Below, one piece after another: positions 278 through 5,337 of a DNA stretch of 5,337 bases. The position numbers were made by a program, and so were the translations under genes. The notes below the pieces were generated by a model. It did not search any database, had not been told where the DNA came from, and saw nothing but the letters and a program-made list of their open reading frames with translations. Source of the stretch: Flavobacteriaceae bacterium (GTDB lineage: Bacteria > Bacteroidota > Bacteroidia > Flavobacteriales > Flavobacteriaceae); assembly GCA_947482805.1 (NCBI GenBank), contig CANKLK010000145.1, forward strand, positions 1 to 5,337. Direction: 5' to 3'. How positions within the stretch are numbered: position 1 is the stretch's first letter; every line of letters starts with the position of its first letter.

Positions 278-691
278 TTATAAAAACGATTGCAACGCCA
301 ATTCATAACTTTTCAAACCAAAGCCAATAATAATTCCTTTGGCATTTGGAGAAATAAAAGACTGATGTCTAAATTCTTCACGTGAAAATGTATTTGAGAT
401 GTGTACCTCAATAACGGGAGTTGATATTGCTTTTACCGCATCGCCAATTCCAACAGAGGTATGCGTATAAGCAGCCGCATTGAGAATGATGCCGTCAAAT
501 GTAAACCCAACTTCTTGGATTTTATCAATCAGTTCACCTTCTATATTACTTTGAAAATAAGAAAGCGTAATGTTTGGATAGCTTTTTTTCAACTGGTCAT
601 AAAAAACATCGAAAGTCATGTTGCCATAGACTTCAGGCTCACGCTTGCCTAATAAGTTTAAATTAGGGCCATTTATTATTATTATTTTCAT
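278..691 (-). CDS. aroQ: 3-dehydroquinate dehydratase, type II (AroQ)
   Basis: This enzyme dehydrates 3-dehydroquinate to 3-dehydroshikimate, the third step of the shikimate pathway to aromatic amino acids. It is a small cytoplasmic enzyme, normally a dodecamer. At 137 residues it is slightly shorter than the usual 140-150. The family signatures are all present in order: NGPNLNLLGKREPEVYG (residues 7-23, with Arg17 and Tyr22 of the active-site lid), SNIEGELID (48-56), LNAAAYTHTS (70-79, Asn71 and His77), EVHISN (95-100, His97) and REEFRH (104-109, Arg108). All catalytic residues known for the family are therefore kept and the gene should be functional. The start ATG at 691-689 is fixed by the MKIIIINGPNLN beginning. 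The first 17 codons are duplicated at 2420-2470. A terminator hairpin ends only about 23 bases upstream of the start, and no TAnnTTTG promoter element is visible there, so its present transcription is unclear. Confidence 0.97.
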   Translation of the reverse strand: MKIIIINGPNLNLLGKREPEVYGNMTFDVFYDQLKKSYPNITLSYFQSNIEGELIDKIQEVGFTFDGIILNAAAYTHTSVGIGDAVKAISTPVIEVHISNTFSREEFRHQSFISPNAKGIIIGFGLKSYELALQSFL

Positions 692-696
692 GGGGA
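641..696. repeat. Direct repeat, copy A (start of intact aroQ)
   Basis: This 56-base stretch recurs at 2420-2475 with one difference (T at 653, C at 2432). It covers aroQ codons 1-17 and five bases before the ATG. The mismatch falls on the third base of Leu13 (TTA here, TTG in the other copy) and is silent. A weaker match continues toward about 630 if one single-base gap and two or three substitutions are allowed. On the other side identity ends abruptly after 696. Offset between the copies is 1779 bases. Confidence 0.95.
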
Positions 697-714
697 TTAT
701 ATTTTTTAGTCATG

Positions 715-745
715 AAAAAAAAAGGGAAACATTGTTTCCCTTTTT
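715..745 (-). terminator. Intrinsic terminator after the TM2/DUF2752 pair
   Basis: GGGAAAC (724-730) and GTTTCCC (734-740) form a perfect 7-bp stem with a 3-base ATT loop. It is flanked by nine A's (715-723) on one side and five T's (741-745) on the other. Read on the minus strand, this is a GC-containing stem followed by a nine-T tract, 20-50 bases past the DUF2752 stop codon. It could also act weakly on the plus strand. Its distal end lies about 23 bases from the aroQ ATG, so it should insulate aroQ from the genes upstream. Confidence 0.85.
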
Positions 746-764
746 AAAATGATAAATAAAAAAA

Positions 765-1079
765 TTAAGTTAGTCTTCCCAATACTCCAGGTAATGATTT
801 GCCTCTTACTTCAAAGAATGCTTTGAGCCATAGTGGAAATAGTAAAGGAACAACAATAAATGACAATTTATTAAATTCCCATGCTTTTTGAAATTCAAAA
901 TGAATAAAATGCATTATAGCTCGTGTCATCCCACAAGCATAACACTCCATTCCAGCAAGTAACTTGGAAAGACAAATGCTCTCGCCATTATCAAATAAAT
1001 CTGAAGGTAAACAAATTAAAACAAAGGGTGCTACAATGGTTATCCATATTCTTGTATGGAAAACTATATTTCTTATCAT
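765..1079 (-). CDS. DUF2752 family membrane protein
   Basis: The 104-residue product carries the family hallmark CxxCGxxRA (C46-Y-A-C49-G50-M-T-R53-A54), followed by a hydrophobic helix region and AWEFN (66-70), equivalent to the usual A...NP motif. Hydrophobic segments at about residues 11-25 and 72-90 suggest two membrane helices, with the Cys pair between them. The biochemical role of DUF2752 is not known; the paired cysteines invite metal-binding or redox ideas, but nothing here proves either. It starts 8 bases after the stop of the TM2-domain gene, and the two are almost certainly cotranscribed. A TM2 plus DUF2752 pairing is, as I recall, common in Bacteroidota. The unit ends at the hairpin at 715-745. 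Confidence 0.87.
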   Translation of the reverse strand: MIRNIVFHTRIWITIVAPFVLICLPSDLFDNGESICLSKLLAGMECYACGMTRAIMHFIHFEFQKAWEFNKLSFIVVPLLFPLWLKAFFEVRGKSLPGVLGRLT

Positions 1080-1087
1080 AAATTTTT

Positions 1088-1447
1088 TTAAAGCGTTTTG
1101 TCGTAGTTACCATCTTTTGGCTGTAAATCACCTATAATGATTCTAACTAAGTCAATAAGAGACCAAATACCGCATCCACCTAAAGTTAACAATTGAACGA
1201 CTCCTTGCCATGTGTAACCAAGATAGAATCTGTGAATTCCAATTCCGCCAATTAAAGCACAAACAATTAAAGCAATAACCTGACTTTTACCGCCGCCAGC
1301 AGCAGCAGGAGATGTCAACTCTTCTTTTTGAACAACTGTTGTCGTTGAATTGTTGGTTGAAGTTCTTTGAACAGGAAACGACGCATATGATGCTGTTAAA
1401 GAAACTGCAAAAAATGCCAACATTGATAAAAATAATTTAAATTTCAT
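1088..1447 (-). CDS. TM2-domain protein with signal peptide
   Basis: The 119-residue product begins with a signal peptide (about 1-23, MKFKLFLSMLAFFAVSLTASYAS). A short Ser/Thr/Asn-rich linker follows (about 24-48), then AAAGGGKSQ. The TM2 domain comes next: a first helix at about 56-75 ending in GGIGIHRFYLGYTWQG, and a second helix at about 82-106 with GGCGIWSLIDLVRIIIGDL. The G-x-HRFYLG turn and WxLIDL...I motif are diagnostic of TM2 (PF05154). The function of bacterial TM2 proteins is poorly defined. If the N-terminal peptide is cleaved, the domain would sit in the inner membrane with a short periplasmic tail. It is the first gene of a two-gene unit with the DUF2752 protein and is divergent from the secreted protein at 1503, with only 55 bases between the starts. 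Confidence 0.92.
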   Translation of the reverse strand: MKFKLFLSMLAFFAVSLTASYASFPVQRTSTNNSTTTVVQKEELTSPAAAGGGKSQVIALIVCALIGGIGIHRFYLGYTWQGVVQLLTLGGCGIWSLIDLVRIIIGDLQPKDGNYDKTL

Positions 1448-1476
1448 AATAAAATAATAAAAGGTTAGTAAATAAT

Positions 1477-1495
1477 TATATTTGTCACAAAAATA
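1477..1495. promoter_or_regulatory. Overlapping divergent promoter elements (two TAnnTTTG -7 boxes)
   Basis: On the plus strand TATATTTG (1477-1484) matches the Bacteroidota -7 consensus TAnnTTTG exactly. On the minus strand TATTTTTG (1495-1488) also matches exactly. The boxes face each other across three bases, so the two start sites would be transcribed across one another. Expected plus-strand start near 1490 leaves 12-19 bases to the ATG at 1503 or 1509; the minus-strand start near 1482 leaves about 35 bases to the TM2 ATG at 1447. No clear -33 TTG is seen at proper spacing on either strand, and chance matches are frequent in AT-rich DNA. Confidence 0.5.
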
Positions 1496-1502
1496 TAAAA
1501 AA

Positions 1503-2387
1503 ATGTATATGAAAGAATTTTTTTTTCTTTTTTTATTGATTTCTTCAATAAAAAGCTTTTCGCAAACTAATTATGAATTTTATGGAGCATTAAAATTAAA
1601 CGAGAATGATAAAACCTTAGTCATTTATAGGTTGATTTTTTCTGAATCTAAAGGTATTTTAAAAGGTTATTCAATTACAGATATGGGTGGGGTCAATGAA
1701 ACTAAAAACGTCATTAAGGGAAATTATAATAAAAAGACGAAAGCATTTTCATTTTATGAAGATGATATTTTATATACTAAATCTAACTACAATAAAAATG
1801 ATTTTTGTTTTGTGGTTTATGAGGGAAAATTGAAACTCATTGAAAATACCAATAAGATTGAGGGCAAATTTAAAAGTTTCTATAAAAACAAGAAAGAATG
1901 TATCAATGGAAGTTTGGTCTTAGTTGGTTCGGCCAAATTGAAAAAAGTAATAAATAAGATTAATAGTAAAATTCAAAATTCCAATAAAGTTGATGTGGAA
2001 ACAAAAATAAAAGTTAATCCACTAACTATTTTAGATAGTTTAAAAGTTAATAATCTTACTAATGGTCAAAATTTAAATGTTTTTTCAAAATCTAGTTCCG
2101 TTACTATTGAAGTTTGGGATTCTAAAATTGATGATGGAGATTGTATTAATTTGTATCAAGATGATTTAGTGATTTTAAAGAATTTTAAAATTACAAATCA
2201 AAAGAAAACTATAACCACTATACTCACAGCTGAAAAAACTGTTTTTAAATTAGAAGCTTTAAATGAAGGAGATCGGCCAGGAAATACAGTTATGATAAGA
2301 CTAGTGGATTCAGATAGCAGGGTTTTTGAATTGATTTCCTTTTTGAAAACAAGGGAAAAAGCCTCAATAACAATTATAAAAAATTAA
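1503..2387 (+). CDS. Secreted protein of unknown function, very AT-rich
   Basis: I do not recognise a named family. The product (294 residues from the ATG at 1503; an ATG at 1509 gives 292) starts with a strongly hydrophobic signal peptide ending SIKSFSQ, probably cut before Gln21 or Thr22, so it is exported. A first part (about 22-146) is beta-rich with repeated short strands and many Lys/Asn residues. A Lys/Asn-rich linker follows (about 147-176). A C-terminal part (about 177-294) has IEVWDSKIDDGDCINLY (202-218) and ALNEGDRPGNT (252-262), a layout I associate with beta-sandwich-like tails of secreted Bacteroidota proteins. The TTG at 1482 also opens the frame, but it lies inside the -7 box and before any plausible transcript start, so I reject it. 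Base composition is visibly more AT-rich than in aroQ or xerD, and Lys, Asn and Ile codons dominate, consistent with acquisition. It lies between the two aroQ-start repeats. Confidence 0.78.
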   Translation: MYMKEFFFLFLLISSIKSFSQTNYEFYGALKLNENDKTLVIYRLIFSESKGILKGYSITDMGGVNETKNVIKGNYNKKTKAFSFYEDDILYTKSNYNKNDFCFVVYEGKLKLIENTNKIEGKFKSFYKNKKECINGSLVLVGSAKLKKVINKINSKIQNSNKVDVETKIKVNPLTILDSLKVNNLTNGQNLNVFSKSSSVTIEVWDSKIDDGDCINLYQDDLVILKNFKITNQKKTITTILTAEKTVFKLEALNEGDRPGNTVMIRLVDSDSRVFELISFLKTREKASITIIKN

Positions 2388-2470
2388 AATAAATAATTAA
2401 TTACGTTCAATTTCCGGCCACGCTTGCCTAACAAGTTTAAATTAGGGCCATTTATTATTATTATTTTCAT
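2384..2470 (-). pseudogene. aroQ: Truncated remnant of the aroQ 5' end
   Basis: On the minus strand an ATG at 2470-2468 opens 17 codons identical in protein sequence to residues 1-17 of AroQ (MKIIIINGPNLNLLGKR). It then departs as GRKLNVINYLF and stops at 2386-2384. The remnant ends just before the lid Tyr22 and all later active-site residues, so it cannot encode an enzyme. The point of departure can be aligned a few codons further if one base is deleted and two or three changed (GAGCCTGAA against GGCCGGAA). It is most simply the former start of the gene left behind by the insertion of the 697-2419 block. Confidence 0.9.
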
Positions 2471-2475
2471 GGGGA
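2420..2475. repeat. Direct repeat, copy B (aroQ start remnant)
   Basis: This is the partner of the repeat at 641-696: same orientation, 55 of 56 bases identical, single difference at 2432. Identity stops sharply after 2475 on the xerD-proximal side. The two copies are placed like the ends of an inserted segment of 1779 bases per repeat period. Confidence 0.95.
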
Positions 2476-2676
2476 CAAATATTTCTGTAAAAATAGGAAT
2501 AAACAGTTTAATGTAGTATTTATTTTTTAGCTAAAAAAAGCACTTACTAAATAGGGAAAATGAATTTTTACCCTCAAAATTTTAAGTTTTTCATAATGGT
2601 TACATCGTTGTTATTAGCATGAATTAGATTTAAAATATTGTAAAACAACGATTTAAATATATTTTTTGTTAATAAT

Positions 2677-2688
2677 GTTGTTAACAAC
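2677..2688. promoter_or_regulatory. 12-bp palindrome GTTGTTAACAAC, candidate operator
   Basis: This is a perfect dyad of 12 bases, 38 bases upstream of the -7 box of the barrel gene. The same GTTGTT half-site recurs at 2607-2612 and, inverted, AACAAC at 2644-2649. The spacing and reuse of the half-site fit a binding site for a dimeric regulator. No regulator gene is in the window and no named operator is recognised, so the role is inference. Confidence 0.35.
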
Positions 2689-2725
2689 TGCAAAGACCGA
2701 TTATGATGAAAGATAAAATTCCTTA

Positions 2726-2733
2726 TAAATTTG
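2726..2733 (+). promoter_or_regulatory. Candidate -7 promoter element of the outer-membrane barrel gene
   Basis: TAAATTTG is an exact match to the Bacteroidota TAnnTTTG -7 element and lies 28 bases before the ATG at 2762, giving a short A-rich leader. No TTG is found at the expected -33 distance, which lowers confidence. Confidence 0.5.
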
Positions 2734-2761
2734 AGTATTATTAATTTTAAACTAAATAAAA

Positions 2762-3475
2762 ATGAAAAAAATTATTTTAACAGTTGCTGCAGTATTCGCT
2801 TTATCGTTTGCTAATGCACAAGACATTAAATCATCAAAAGGTGAAAACTATCTTCCTGAAGCAGGGGATTGGGCCATTAGCTTTAATGCTGACGGTGTTT
2901 TCGATTACGTTGGGAATGCATTCAATGGTAGTGCAGATAACAGCGCTCCAAAAGTTGCTAGTGTAAGAGACAATTGTTTTGTTGGAAAAAAATTCATTAC
3001 TGACAAAACAGCTTACAGAATTGTTGCTAATTTAGGTTTTGGAAGTAACAACCTAAAAGGCGGTGATTATAATGGAGATAATACTGTAGATTTTGCTACA
3101 TACAAAGCCTCAACAATTAATTTGACTGTTGGATTAGGTAAAGAATGGAGAAAAGGTTCTACAAGATTACAAGGATTTTATGGAGCTGATGCATTAGTTG
3201 GTTTTTCTTCTACAAAATGGACAGAGACTAACCCATCAGGAGTTAATGAAAAATTTGATGCTGGTACTTCTGTTAATTTTGGAGTAACTGGTTTTATTGG
3301 TGCTGAATATTTCCTTTTTCCTAAAATGTCTATAGGTGCACAATACAATTACGGTTTGCAAATTGCTTCACAAGGTGCTTCTAAATTAGATTCAGTTGAA
3401 CAAAGCAAATCAACTTCAAACGTTAACTTAGGTAATGTAACTTCTGCTTCAATGAATTTAACATTACACTTCTAG
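2762..3475 (+). CDS. Outer-membrane beta-barrel protein
   Basis: The 237-residue product has a classic Sec signal peptide cut after FANA or FANAQ (about residue 19-20). The mature part alternates hydrophobic and polar residues as in an outer-membrane barrel: strands near 37-50 (WAISFNADGVFDYV), 72-95, 117-130, 136-150, 171-200, and a final strand 228-237 ending in Phe (MNLTLHF), the usual terminal aromatic of barrel proteins. An Asp/Gly/Asn-rich loop at about 100-108 (GGDYNGDNT) resembles a calcium-binding type loop, but this is not diagnostic. About eight strands are expected, so it is a small barrel rather than a TonB receptor. No specific family name can be assigned. It appears to be monocistronic, with a TAnnTTTG element upstream and a terminator 20-50 bases downstream. 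Base composition is less extreme than the 1503 gene. Confidence 0.85.
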   Translation: MKKIILTVAAVFALSFANAQDIKSSKGENYLPEAGDWAISFNADGVFDYVGNAFNGSADNSAPKVASVRDNCFVGKKFITDKTAYRIVANLGFGSNNLKGGDYNGDNTVDFATYKASTINLTVGLGKEWRKGSTRLQGFYGADALVGFSSTKWTETNPSGVNEKFDAGTSVNFGVTGFIGAEYFLFPKMSIGAQYNYGLQIASQGASKLDSVEQSKSTSNVNLGNVTSASMNLTLHF

Positions 3476-3625: not shown

Positions 3626-4108
3626 ATGAAAAAAATTATTTTTATTGGACTCGCACTTTTTGCATTAGTTGCAACTAGTTGTAAGTCAACTGTAGCAAGT
3701 GCTACATCTACACCTATGTCAGTAACAGAGAACATTAGACCCCTAGATGCTGATATTACTGTTGATGTAACAAAAAAGATATCTGGAGAATCAAGTGCAT
3801 TATATTTTTTGTGCTTTAGATTAAAAGGAGATAAAAAATATGCTGAGGGAGTAGATTATTCAACTAGAACAAATTTATTTTCATTTGCTGTTTCTAGAGC
3901 TAAATCTGCTGCTGCATACAAAGCAATTATTGATTCAAATACCGATGTTATTGTACATCCAAATTATGTAGTTGATGTAGAAAATTATGTTTTTTTCAAA
4001 AAAGTAAATGTTAAAGTAACCGGTTATGCTGGTAAAATAAATAAGATTTACCAACAAAATTACTGTAATCCTTGTAGCACTGATTGGAAAGGTACCATAA
4101 TTAAATAA
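3626..4108 (+). CDS. Lipoprotein of unknown function
   Basis: The 160-residue product begins with a hydrophobic signal segment (residues 4-16) ending in the lipobox ATSC. Cys19 would be lipidated after signal peptidase II cleavage, anchoring the protein to an envelope membrane. The mature part has a Ser/Thr-rich stretch (20-35), a beta-rich region with DADITVDVTKKISG (41-54), an Ala-rich helix SAAAYKAIIDSNTDVIVHPNYVV (94-116) and VNVKVTGYAGKI (127-138). It closes with YCNPCSTDW (146-154), a CxxC pair near the C-terminus. The combination of a KSAAAYKA helix followed by a 'DVIV.P.YVV' strand and VTGYAGKI reminds me of small TRL-like lipoproteins, but I cannot assign a family. It is the first gene of a pair: the next gene starts 23 bases after its stop, and no terminator lies between them. 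Confidence 0.82.
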   Translation: MKKIIFIGLALFALVATSCKSTVASATSTPMSVTENIRPLDADITVDVTKKISGESSALYFLCFRLKGDKKYAEGVDYSTRTNLFSFAVSRAKSAAAYKAIIDSNTDVIVHPNYVVDVENYVFFKKVNVKVTGYAGKINKIYQQNYCNPCSTDWKGTIIK

Positions 4109-4701: not shown

Positions 4702-5337
4702 ATGAACTGGAATACCTATATCAAGAGTTTTCAATCCTATCTCAAAATTGAACGCGGGTTGTCTAAAAACACCGTTGCAAATTATAGCTTTGATTTGGAG
4801 CGTTTGTCTAAGTTTTTACTTGAAAATGAAATAAGCATTTCTCCCGAAAAGATAAACGAAGAAACTATTCAACAGTTTATATATGCTGTTTCCAAAGAAG
4901 TAAACGCTCGTTCACAAGCTCGAATTATTTCCGGTTTAAAAAGCTTTTTTTCGTATCTCATTTTTGAAGATTATCGAACTGATAATCCAATGGAGTTAAT
5001 TGAAGCACCAAGATTAGGCAGAAAACTTCCTGATACACTTTCTATTGACGATATAGATAATCTGATTGCAGCTATTGATTTGTCAACTCCTGAGGGCGAA
5101 AGAAACAGGGCCATACTTGAAACTTTGTATGGTTGTGGACTTCGAGTTTCTGAAATTACTTCGTTGAAAATTTCTGATTTGTTTTTTGATGAAGGTTTTA
5201 TCAAAATAACCGGAAAAGGTAACAAACAGCGATTTGTTCCCTTAGCCAATGCAACACAAAAGTATATAGAATTATACAAAGACACAACCAGAAATCATAT
5301 GACAATTGTGAAAGGTTATGAAGACACTTTGTTTTTA
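4702..5337 (+). CDS. xerD: Tyrosine recombinase XerD (partial, 3' end beyond window)
   Basis: The frame is open from the ATG at 4702 to the window edge, giving 212 of about 300 residues. XerD works with XerC, or alone in some lineages, to resolve chromosome dimers at the dif site near cell division. The N-terminal SAM-like DNA-binding domain (about 5-95) shows YLKIERGLSKNTVANYSFDLERL (13-35) and SGLKSFFSYL (77-86), followed by NPMELIEAPRLGRKLPDTLS (95-114). The catalytic domain has GCGLRVSEITSL with catalytic Arg148 and ITGKGNKQRFVPL with the beta-hairpin Lys172, both at the numbering of E. coli XerD. The later HxxR, His/Trp and Tyr residues lie outside the window. The order within this family, and the conserved Bacteroidota context next to aroQ, favour XerD over XerC, though sequence alone does not settle it. 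Its composition is less AT-rich than the preceding accessory genes. No own promoter consensus was found in the 26 bases between the terminator and the start. Confidence 0.93.
   Translation, partial: MNWNTYIKSFQSYLKIERGLSKNTVANYSFDLERLSKFLLENEISISPEKINEETIQQFIYAVSKEVNARSQARIISGLKSFFSYLIFEDYRTDNPMELIEAPRLGRKLPDTLSIDDIDNLIAAIDLSTPEGERNRAILETLYGCGLRVSEITSLKISDLFFDEGFIKITGKGNKQRFVPLANATQKYIELYKDTTRNHMTIVKGYEDTLFL

What the first reader, a model, noticed from the sequence alone, without database searches (positions are those of the whole stretch)
641..2475. Three-gene block inserted in the 5' end of aroQ, bracketed by 56-bp direct repeats that re-supply the gene start
Seen: the first 17 codons of aroQ plus 5 upstream bases occur at 641-696 and again at 2420-2475, same orientation, 55/56 identical, period 1779 bases. 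Copy A leads into a full aroQ; copy B is cut off and runs into unrelated DNA. Between them lie TM2, DUF2752 and an AT-rich secreted gene. Inference: a segment entered the aroQ start and restored the reading frame with its own gene-start copy, as some integrative elements do at gene ends. It carries no recombinase, so either it moves with an enzyme in trans or it arose by recombination with donor DNA carrying its own aroQ start. Insertion at a 5' end of a housekeeping enzyme gene, rather than a tRNA or a 3' end, is unusual.
Basis: partly seen in the sequence, partly recalled or inferred. Interest (0 to 1): 0.85.

Follow-up and report, generated by a model that had tools for sequence, protein, structure and literature searches.

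The report
Gene cassette inserted with target duplication
A small three-gene cassette with no mobility enzyme of its own entered the start of a housekeeping gene of a Flavobacterium-like bacterium, duplicating about 57-65 bases of the gene start so that the gene stayed whole, and relatives suggest that this kind of cassette has done so more than once.

Summary
The repeat is real: 57 columns, one mismatch (640-696, 2419-2475). It flanks a three-gene cassette: a secreted protein ('sec'), divergent from TM2 and DUF2752. The three nearest relatives found lack the cassette and have one aroQ start on the sequence that begins at 2476; in one (L230) that start is 51/51 identical to the remnant. The remnant is thus the original start, and the cassette was inserted with duplication of its target. 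Synonymous divergence from the one close cassette found (L003) is 0.41-0.53 in the cassette, about 2 in aroQ and xerD: the cassette moved without aroQ. In L128 a related cassette sits at the 5' end of xerD between 116-base repeats (94%), with an empty site in L011. Further repeats: a permease 3' end, clpC 3' ends (doubtful), an older aroQ 5' end. Edge repeats: 6 of 72 loci against 2 of 1256 pseudo-cassettes; 66 of 72 show none. No recombinase, plasmid or phage carrier was found. Best reading: insertion with long target duplication, as reported for Helicobacter restriction-modification genes. The joining mechanism is inferred.

The parts
278..691 (-). aroQ, type II 3-dehydroquinate dehydratase, intact
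   Evidence: Pfam and NCBIfam matches
640..696 (-). copy A of the duplicated target: aroQ codons 1-17 plus 5 upstream bases, continuing into the full gene
   Evidence: first 51 coding bases 50/51 identical to the empty site L230
719..745 (-). terminator-like hairpin and T run after DUF2752; the high-identity block shared with L003 ends just beyond it
   Evidence: 1 found, 0.9 expected in shuffles; present in L003 too
697..2418 (.). inserted unit, not present at aroQ in L229, L230, L231, L001
765..1079 (-). DUF2752 protein gene
   Evidence: PF10825, E 5.9e-15
1088..1447 (-). TM2-domain protein gene
   Evidence: PF05154, E 1e-18; a signal peptide is read by eye only
1509..2387 (+). secreted protein ('sec') of 292 residues, used here as the marker of the cassette
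   Evidence: no family hit; 69 homologues at E 1e-10 or better; AlphaFold2 model, mean pLDDT 90; start codon chosen to match L003
2419..2475 (-). copy B of the duplicated target: the original aroQ start, cut after codon 17
   Evidence: first 51 coding bases 51/51 identical to L230
2476..2825 (-). original aroQ upstream region, now 1.78 kb from the working gene
   Evidence: aligns to the sequence just upstream of aroQ in L001 and L229, L230, L231

Best explanation
A recombinase-less cassette (sec / TM2 / DUF2752) entered this chromosome from another lineage and was inserted in the first codons of aroQ with duplication of 57-65 bases of target. The original upstream region and first 17 codons were left as a remnant; the second copy of the target kept a complete aroQ, now behind TM2-DUF2752. 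Shown by comparison: insertion, empty sites, target origin of both copies, divergence of the cassette out of step with aroQ and xerD, and at least one further insertion of this kind (xerD, L128) besides the older aroQ case in L003. Inferred: the cassette's arrival by transfer; joining by non-homologous or very-short-homology repair, as suggested for 'insertion with long target duplication'; and that insertions are seen at gene ends because only there does the duplication spare the gene.
For: Empty sites in the three nearest relatives found and in L001. Remnant 51/51 identical to a cassette-less sister's start. dS between window and L003: sec 0.44, TM2 0.41, DUF2752 0.53, against aroQ 1.98 and xerD 2.07; in the nine other pairs with sec measured, sec dS is 1.39 or more or saturated. 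Second target: xerD 5' end in L128, 116 bases, 109 identical, empty site L011. Third: near the 3' end of an FtsX-type permease in L218, 63 bases, 73%. Enrichment: edge repeats of 35 bits or more at 6 of 72 cassettes against 2 of 1256 pseudo-cassettes in the same loci; 40 bits or more, 5 of 72 against 0 of 1256. sec tree (70 of 72 rows): the window and L003 join L118 and a pnp-rpoD row (L112); the label 'xerD and aroQ in the stretch' needs 10 changes, 7 forced by starred branches.
Against: 66 of 72 cassettes have no edge repeat at 35 bits, so most insertions either lost it or never had it. Of the six with one, all but L218 had been seen before the control was run, and L117 and L120 are near neighbours on the sec tree whose repeat is mostly a terminator palindrome that also encodes the last residues of sec and of the next gene: perhaps one event or a shared terminator. 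TM2 dS is below that of xerD in all ten pairs in which cassettes were compared, and DUF2752 in some, so part of the contrast may be constraint. The joining step is not observed, and no microhomology was evident by eye at the junctions. L003 and the window were hit at the same gene end in the same orientation, which random joining does not predict.
Confidence: 0.7

Rival explanations
1. Homing by homologous recombination: a donor that already carried aroQ'-cassette-aroQ recombined with a cassette-less recipient, the two duplicated arms pairing with the single recipient aroQ start. The duplication made by a first, rare insertion then serves as the homology arms for further spread.
For: Window and L003 share gene end and orientation, and L003 has an older, decayed remnant. 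In L128 the seven sites at which the two copies differ lie towards the cassette side of the copy that departs from cassette-less L011: 6 and 9 in the remnant, 69, 72, 74, 109 and 111 in the full copy; 6 and 9 of the remnant and 69 of the full copy match cassette-bearing L126.
Against: The other four departures of the L128 full copy are not matched by L126 (72 is matched by L122 and also by cassette-less L021; 74, 109 and 111 by no row shown); the pattern rests on few sites and was seen after the fact. In the window the stretch between remnant and sec does not align to L003's decayed remnant better than shuffles (p 0.35), the breakpoints differ from those of L003, and both copies are recipient-like over the 51 coding bases.
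Confidence: 0.2
2. Integrative element with an attachment site in a gene 5' end, moved by a recombinase in trans (as dusA islands are by their own integrase).
Against: No recombinase in the block. The duplicated targets (aroQ, xerD, permease, clpC ends) are different genes and the repeats 36 to 116 bases long; no common core was seen, by eye.
Confidence: 0.04
3. Ancestral cassette upstream of aroQ inherited vertically; the remnant is a late local duplication of the aroQ start.
For: Cassettes stand beside aroQ in several lineages.
Against: dS contrast; empty nearest relatives; the remnant, not the working copy, lies on the native upstream region.
Confidence: 0.04
4. Assembly error in a metagenome contig.
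For: Source of the window unknown; no own genome held.
Against: Same arrangement with a decayed remnant in L003, and the analogue in L128 from a 243-kb contig.
Confidence: 0.02

Closest known systems
Insertion with long target duplication (Nobusato et al. 2000, restriction-modification genes in Helicobacter pylori)
   Same: Insert flanked by long direct copies of the target of variable length, seen by comparison with a relative; no mobility enzyme in the insert here.
   Different: Cargo is not a restriction-modification system; host is a Flavobacterium-like bacterium; in the cases seen here the target gene stays intact. The original paper was not looked up: known from passages of PMC3031569 and PMC1643837 and from recall.
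dusA 5'-end prophages and islands (PMC4482086)
   Same: Insertion in the 5' end of a housekeeping gene.
   Different: Those carry a dedicated integrase and use one site (title and abstract start); here there is none and the sites differ.
Insertion sequences and composite transposons
   Same: Target duplication.
   Different: No transposase among the block's genes; the duplication here is 36-116 bases, against 8-10 for IS1 and 4 for IS5 in passages of PMC3031569.

Membership tests
Insertion with long target duplication | Empty site in a close relative | tested here: met
   L229, L230, L231, L001 for aroQ; L011 for xerD of L128. Not tested for L218, L117, L120, L112
Insertion with long target duplication | Both flanking copies derive from the target | tested here: met
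   51/51 and 50/51 to L230; L128 remnant and full copy 109/116 and 106/116 to L011
Insertion with long target duplication | Duplication long and of variable length | tested here: met
   57-65 (window), 63 (L218), 101 (L003), 116 (L128) bases; 36-38 for L117/L120 with doubt
Insertion with long target duplication | Cargo is a restriction-modification system (as in the first cases) | tested here: not met
   TM2, DUF2752 and a protein of no known family; no PADLOC-DB hit for the three. I take this as a feature of the first cases, not of the mechanism, from recall; it limits the claim to 'works like'
Insertion with long target duplication | Joining mechanism | not testable with these tools
   to my recall it is not settled for the original cases either
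Integrase-borne integrative element | Own site-specific recombinase | tested here: not met
   none in 697-2418; xerD at 4702 lies outside and stands upstream of aroQ in 58 of 80 loci, many of the others being cut by contig ends
Integrase-borne integrative element | Constant attachment core | tested here: not met
   different target genes duplicated; no core search was run beyond reading the repeats
Plasmid- or phage-borne cargo | Relatives of sec on plasmids or phages | tested here: not met
   no sec in PLSDB or INPHARED at E 1e-5; none confirmed in IMG/VR (pattern search). The TM2 protein does match 8 PHROG families of unknown function

The most novel reading that the evidence does not exclude
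The cassette is a self-homing unit without an enzyme: a first insertion duplicates the end of a housekeeping gene, and the two copies then act as homology arms that let the cassette spread by ordinary recombination into the same gene end of cassette-less relatives, in fixed orientation, while keeping the gene whole each time.
Probability: 0.2. Interest if true: 0.75.

Novelty: new variant of a known kind. Interest (0 to 1): 0.6.

Why it matters
It gives a clean case of gene mobility without an evident recombinase, outside Helicobacter and outside restriction-modification genes, with empty sites, a donor-like relative and more than one target. It offers a simple rule (target duplication plus selection) for why such cassettes are found at the ends of needed genes, and it shows a housekeeping gene cut off from its upstream region and placed behind foreign genes. 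It makes the question of how genes insert with long duplications testable in environmental bacteria.

Tried and rejected
Donor remnant beyond codon 17 in the window: alignment to L003's decayed remnant p 0.35, to the window's own aroQ 0.74, to L001 0.35, to L003 aroQ 0.17; dropped. aroQ or xerD remnants beside other cargo: the 80 aroQ loci (58 with xerD upstream), 40 shuffles each, z cut at 5: aroQ test L003 (z 5.0), L048 (7.2), L070 (6.4), xerD test L046 (5.0); the hits of L048 and L070 cover mostly bases upstream of the start codon and L046's was not followed, so none but L003 is taken as a remnant. Remnants in L131, L132, L134, L118, L122, L124, L126: none clearly above shuffles; the best, L124's aroQ test, is reached by 14 of 300. 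L129's 33-base repeat lies far from the cassette edges and L112's (89 bases, 74%) encloses an extra gene and contains a terminator-like palindrome; neither is among the 6 of 72. One search found 38 of 296 genomes at E 1e-20; 12 of them were already in hand and the surroundings of the other 26 were not examined. Rfam: no match. Fold of sec: no PDB match at E 0.001 or better; avidin-type barrels match a part of it at E about 0.007-0.14; BFVD gave one match below 0.001 with TM 0.13, ignored. re-drew nearly the same genus sample (395 genomes) and added no new cassette. In one search, 2 of 72 sec rows under 230 residues were left out. Double illegitimate recombination in transformation was looked up in a listing only and not used.
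Full report
OBSERVATION. The repeat is as described, one base longer: 640-696 and 2419-2475, 57 columns, one mismatch, spacing 1779. It is far beyond chance (score 114 against at most 35 in 300 shuffles). Copy A begins the intact aroQ; copy B is cut after codon 17 and runs out as a 28-codon frame. The block holds DUF2752, TM2 and a secreted protein of 292 residues without a known family.

WHICH COPY IS THE ORIGINAL. No genome is held for the window, so relatives were used. A scan with AroQ kept the best 80 loci of 566. In L001 the DNA upstream of its single aroQ aligns to window 2409-2825, that is, to the DNA upstream of copy B. A later search with AroQ in 396 genomes of the genus of G002, the genome of L003, titled Flavobacterium sp. 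(387 with a match), gave nearer relatives: G198 (97% protein identity), G328 (95%) and G151 (93%), the top three of a list ordered by score and cut at its end. Eight loci were fetched (L229-L236); 8 of 8 have no sec, TM2 or DUF2752 match in the fetched stretch, and G198, G328 and G151 are not among the 124 of 398 genomes with a sec match. L229, L230 and L231 show one aroQ start on the upstream sequence of copy B. The first 51 bases in L230 are 51/51 identical to copy B and 50/51 to copy A; in L229 46 and 47, in L231 44 and 43. Copy B is therefore the old gene start on the old upstream region, and the block was inserted at about codon 17 with a duplication of 57 to 65 bases.

WHERE THE CASSETTE CAME FROM. 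Of the 80 loci only L003 has the same three genes beside aroQ; eight others have sec and TM2 relatives at 31-44% there. L003's cassette genes are 88-89% identical in DNA, but aroQ 77% and xerD 79%. Synonymous distance is 0.44, 0.41 and 0.53 for sec, TM2 and DUF2752, against 1.98 and 2.07 for aroQ and xerD. Nine other pairs with cassettes were measured. In five with distant aroQ and xerD (L131-L134, L131-L132, L132-L134, window-L118, L003-L118), sec and DUF2752 are at 1.66 or more or saturated and TM2 at 0.94-1.56. In the four pairs among L122, L124, L126 and L128, sec is at 1.39-2.95, TM2 at 0.43-0.66 and DUF2752 at 0.70-1.80. So TM2 alone would prove little and DUF2752 not much; sec carries the case, and the three agree. 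Between the window and cassette-less L229 and L230, xerD and aroQ stand at 0.42-0.77. The high-identity block ends at the sec stop and just past the DUF2752 terminator: the cassette moved without aroQ. L003 itself bears an aroQ remnant, decayed and with a stop at codon 7 (read by eye), over about 101 bases at 69%. A single old insertion does not fit a 50/51-identical pair in the window beside a decayed one in L003 and several empty nearer relatives, unless the copies were converted; two arrivals are simpler.

THE CASSETTE ELSEWHERE. With the window protein, 26 of 398 genomes of the genus have a match at E 1e-40 or better (rows, nearly the same draw, gives 26 of 395), and 46 of 397 genomes of the family at E 1e-15 or better, the L003 genome included. 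Seventy-two loci were compared: 26, plus 45 from the family draw, plus the window. In the 27 of the genus, the window counted with them, DUF2752 was seen in 21 (two of the six without are cut by contig ends); in the 45 others TM2 in 42 and DUF2752 in none at E 1e-4. 29 of 72 have both xerD and aroQ in the stretch, and in 25 the cassette lies between the two: 10 of the genus with aroQ on the DUF2752 side, 15 others with aroQ on the sec side. Other recurring places are what I read as pnp-rpoD and gcvT-yebC/clpC; these gene names, like rny, are recalled from the look of the proteins and were not tested against a family library. On the sec tree (70 of 72 rows; the four loci with both genes on one side were labelled with the 29) the place changes at least 13 times in all against a shuffled mean of 34; the xerD-aroQ label alone needs 10 changes, 7 of them forced by starred branches. 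No sec was found on plasmids, phages or viral contigs at the limits used.

OTHER DUPLICATIONS. L128: the cassette stands against xerD, whose first 116 bases recur on the far side at 109/116. The remnant and about 100 bases upstream of it match the xerD start and upstream region of cassette-less L011 in one alignment, 90.8% over 218 columns. Its relatives L122, L124 and L126 have the cassette at the same place without a detectable remnant. L218: an intact permease gene (MacB_PCD and FtsX domains) on one side; 63 bases near its 3' end recur on the other side at 73%, in a frame that runs to a stop. L117 and L120: 36 and 38 columns with a terminator palindrome that also gives the last residues KPAN to sec and to the next gene, read as clpC. 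L112: 89 bases at 74% after pnp, with an extra gene inside. As a control, pseudo-cassettes of the same length were laid at random in the same loci: 35 bits or more at the edges in 6 of 72 real and 2 of 1256 false; 40 bits or more in 5 of 72 and 0 of 1256. The window started the search; without it the figures are 5 and 4 of 71. All of the six but L218 had been seen, before the control was run and its thresholds chosen.

MECHANISM. Shown by comparison: insertion, target duplication, a cassette out of step with aroQ, more than one target. Inferred: the joining. Different targets and lengths and the lack of an enzyme speak against a recombinase with a fixed site. Duplication at insertion together with the need to keep the target gene predicts what is seen: 5' ends with the remnant on the old upstream side (aroQ, xerD) and a 3' end with an intact gene on one side and the remnant on the other (L218, where no empty site was sought). 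DNA uptake is known in the family for Riemerella but was not seen in Flavobacterium johnsoniae under the same condition (abstract start of PMC7965970 in the listing), so the route of entry is open. Homing through the duplicated arms remains possible: same gene end and orientation in the window and L003, and a hint in L128, where the 7 differing sites lie towards the cassette side of the copy that departs from L011. Three of them match cassette-bearing L126; the other four do not. The window itself gives no support for it.

COMPARISON. [quoted passage not shown] The 2010 follow-up was not held; the original (Gene 2000) was not looked up. The dusA islands (listing and abstract start) share the 5'-end target but carry an integrase. 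Searches for DUF2752 with TM2 domain and for DUF2752 alone found no paper in the library, and a search combining target duplication with Bacteroidota terms gave one unrelated paper; that is all that I can say on print.

CONSEQUENCE FOR aroQ. The old upstream region is now 1.78 kb away, behind a gene on the other strand. aroQ follows TM2 and DUF2752 on the same strand with a terminator-like hairpin at 719-745 between. How aroQ is transcribed now is unknown.

Noticed in passing
L117 and L120, cassette ends: The last codons and stop of sec (KPAN*) lie inside a terminator-like palindrome that also ends the next gene (read as clpC); one DNA word serves as coding end, stop and terminator in two neighbouring genes.
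   Followed up: partly
xerD-aroQ interval, L001-L080: The distance varies from about 0.8 to 3.7 kb among 58 loci, and in many the start of the outer-membrane-type gene at 2762 recurs; it looks like a permissive place for changing cargo.
   Followed up: partly
2762-3475 and 3626-4108: Two probably secreted genes between the old aroQ upstream region and the next outer-membrane-type gene have no Pfam hit; 46 bases at their starts are 72% alike.
   Followed up: no
1509-2387: sec model: eight strands (probably a barrel, with weak avidin likeness), three helices, then an all-beta second domain; the last third alone (about residues 190-300) matches many other proteins of the genus at 24-34%.
   Followed up: partly
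L135 (G152:C91): sec and TM2 are each split over frames: a decaying cassette, or sequencing errors near a contig end.
   Followed up: no
1088-1447: The TM2 protein matches 8 PHROG families of unknown function, best E 2.5e-10: TM2 domains occur in phages even though sec was not found there.
   Followed up: no
1470-1500: Two TAnnTTTG motifs (recalled as the Bacteroidota -7 element) face away from each other between sec and TM2 (1477 plus, 1488 minus), as a divergent promoter pair would; the number in the window is at chance level.
   Followed up: no
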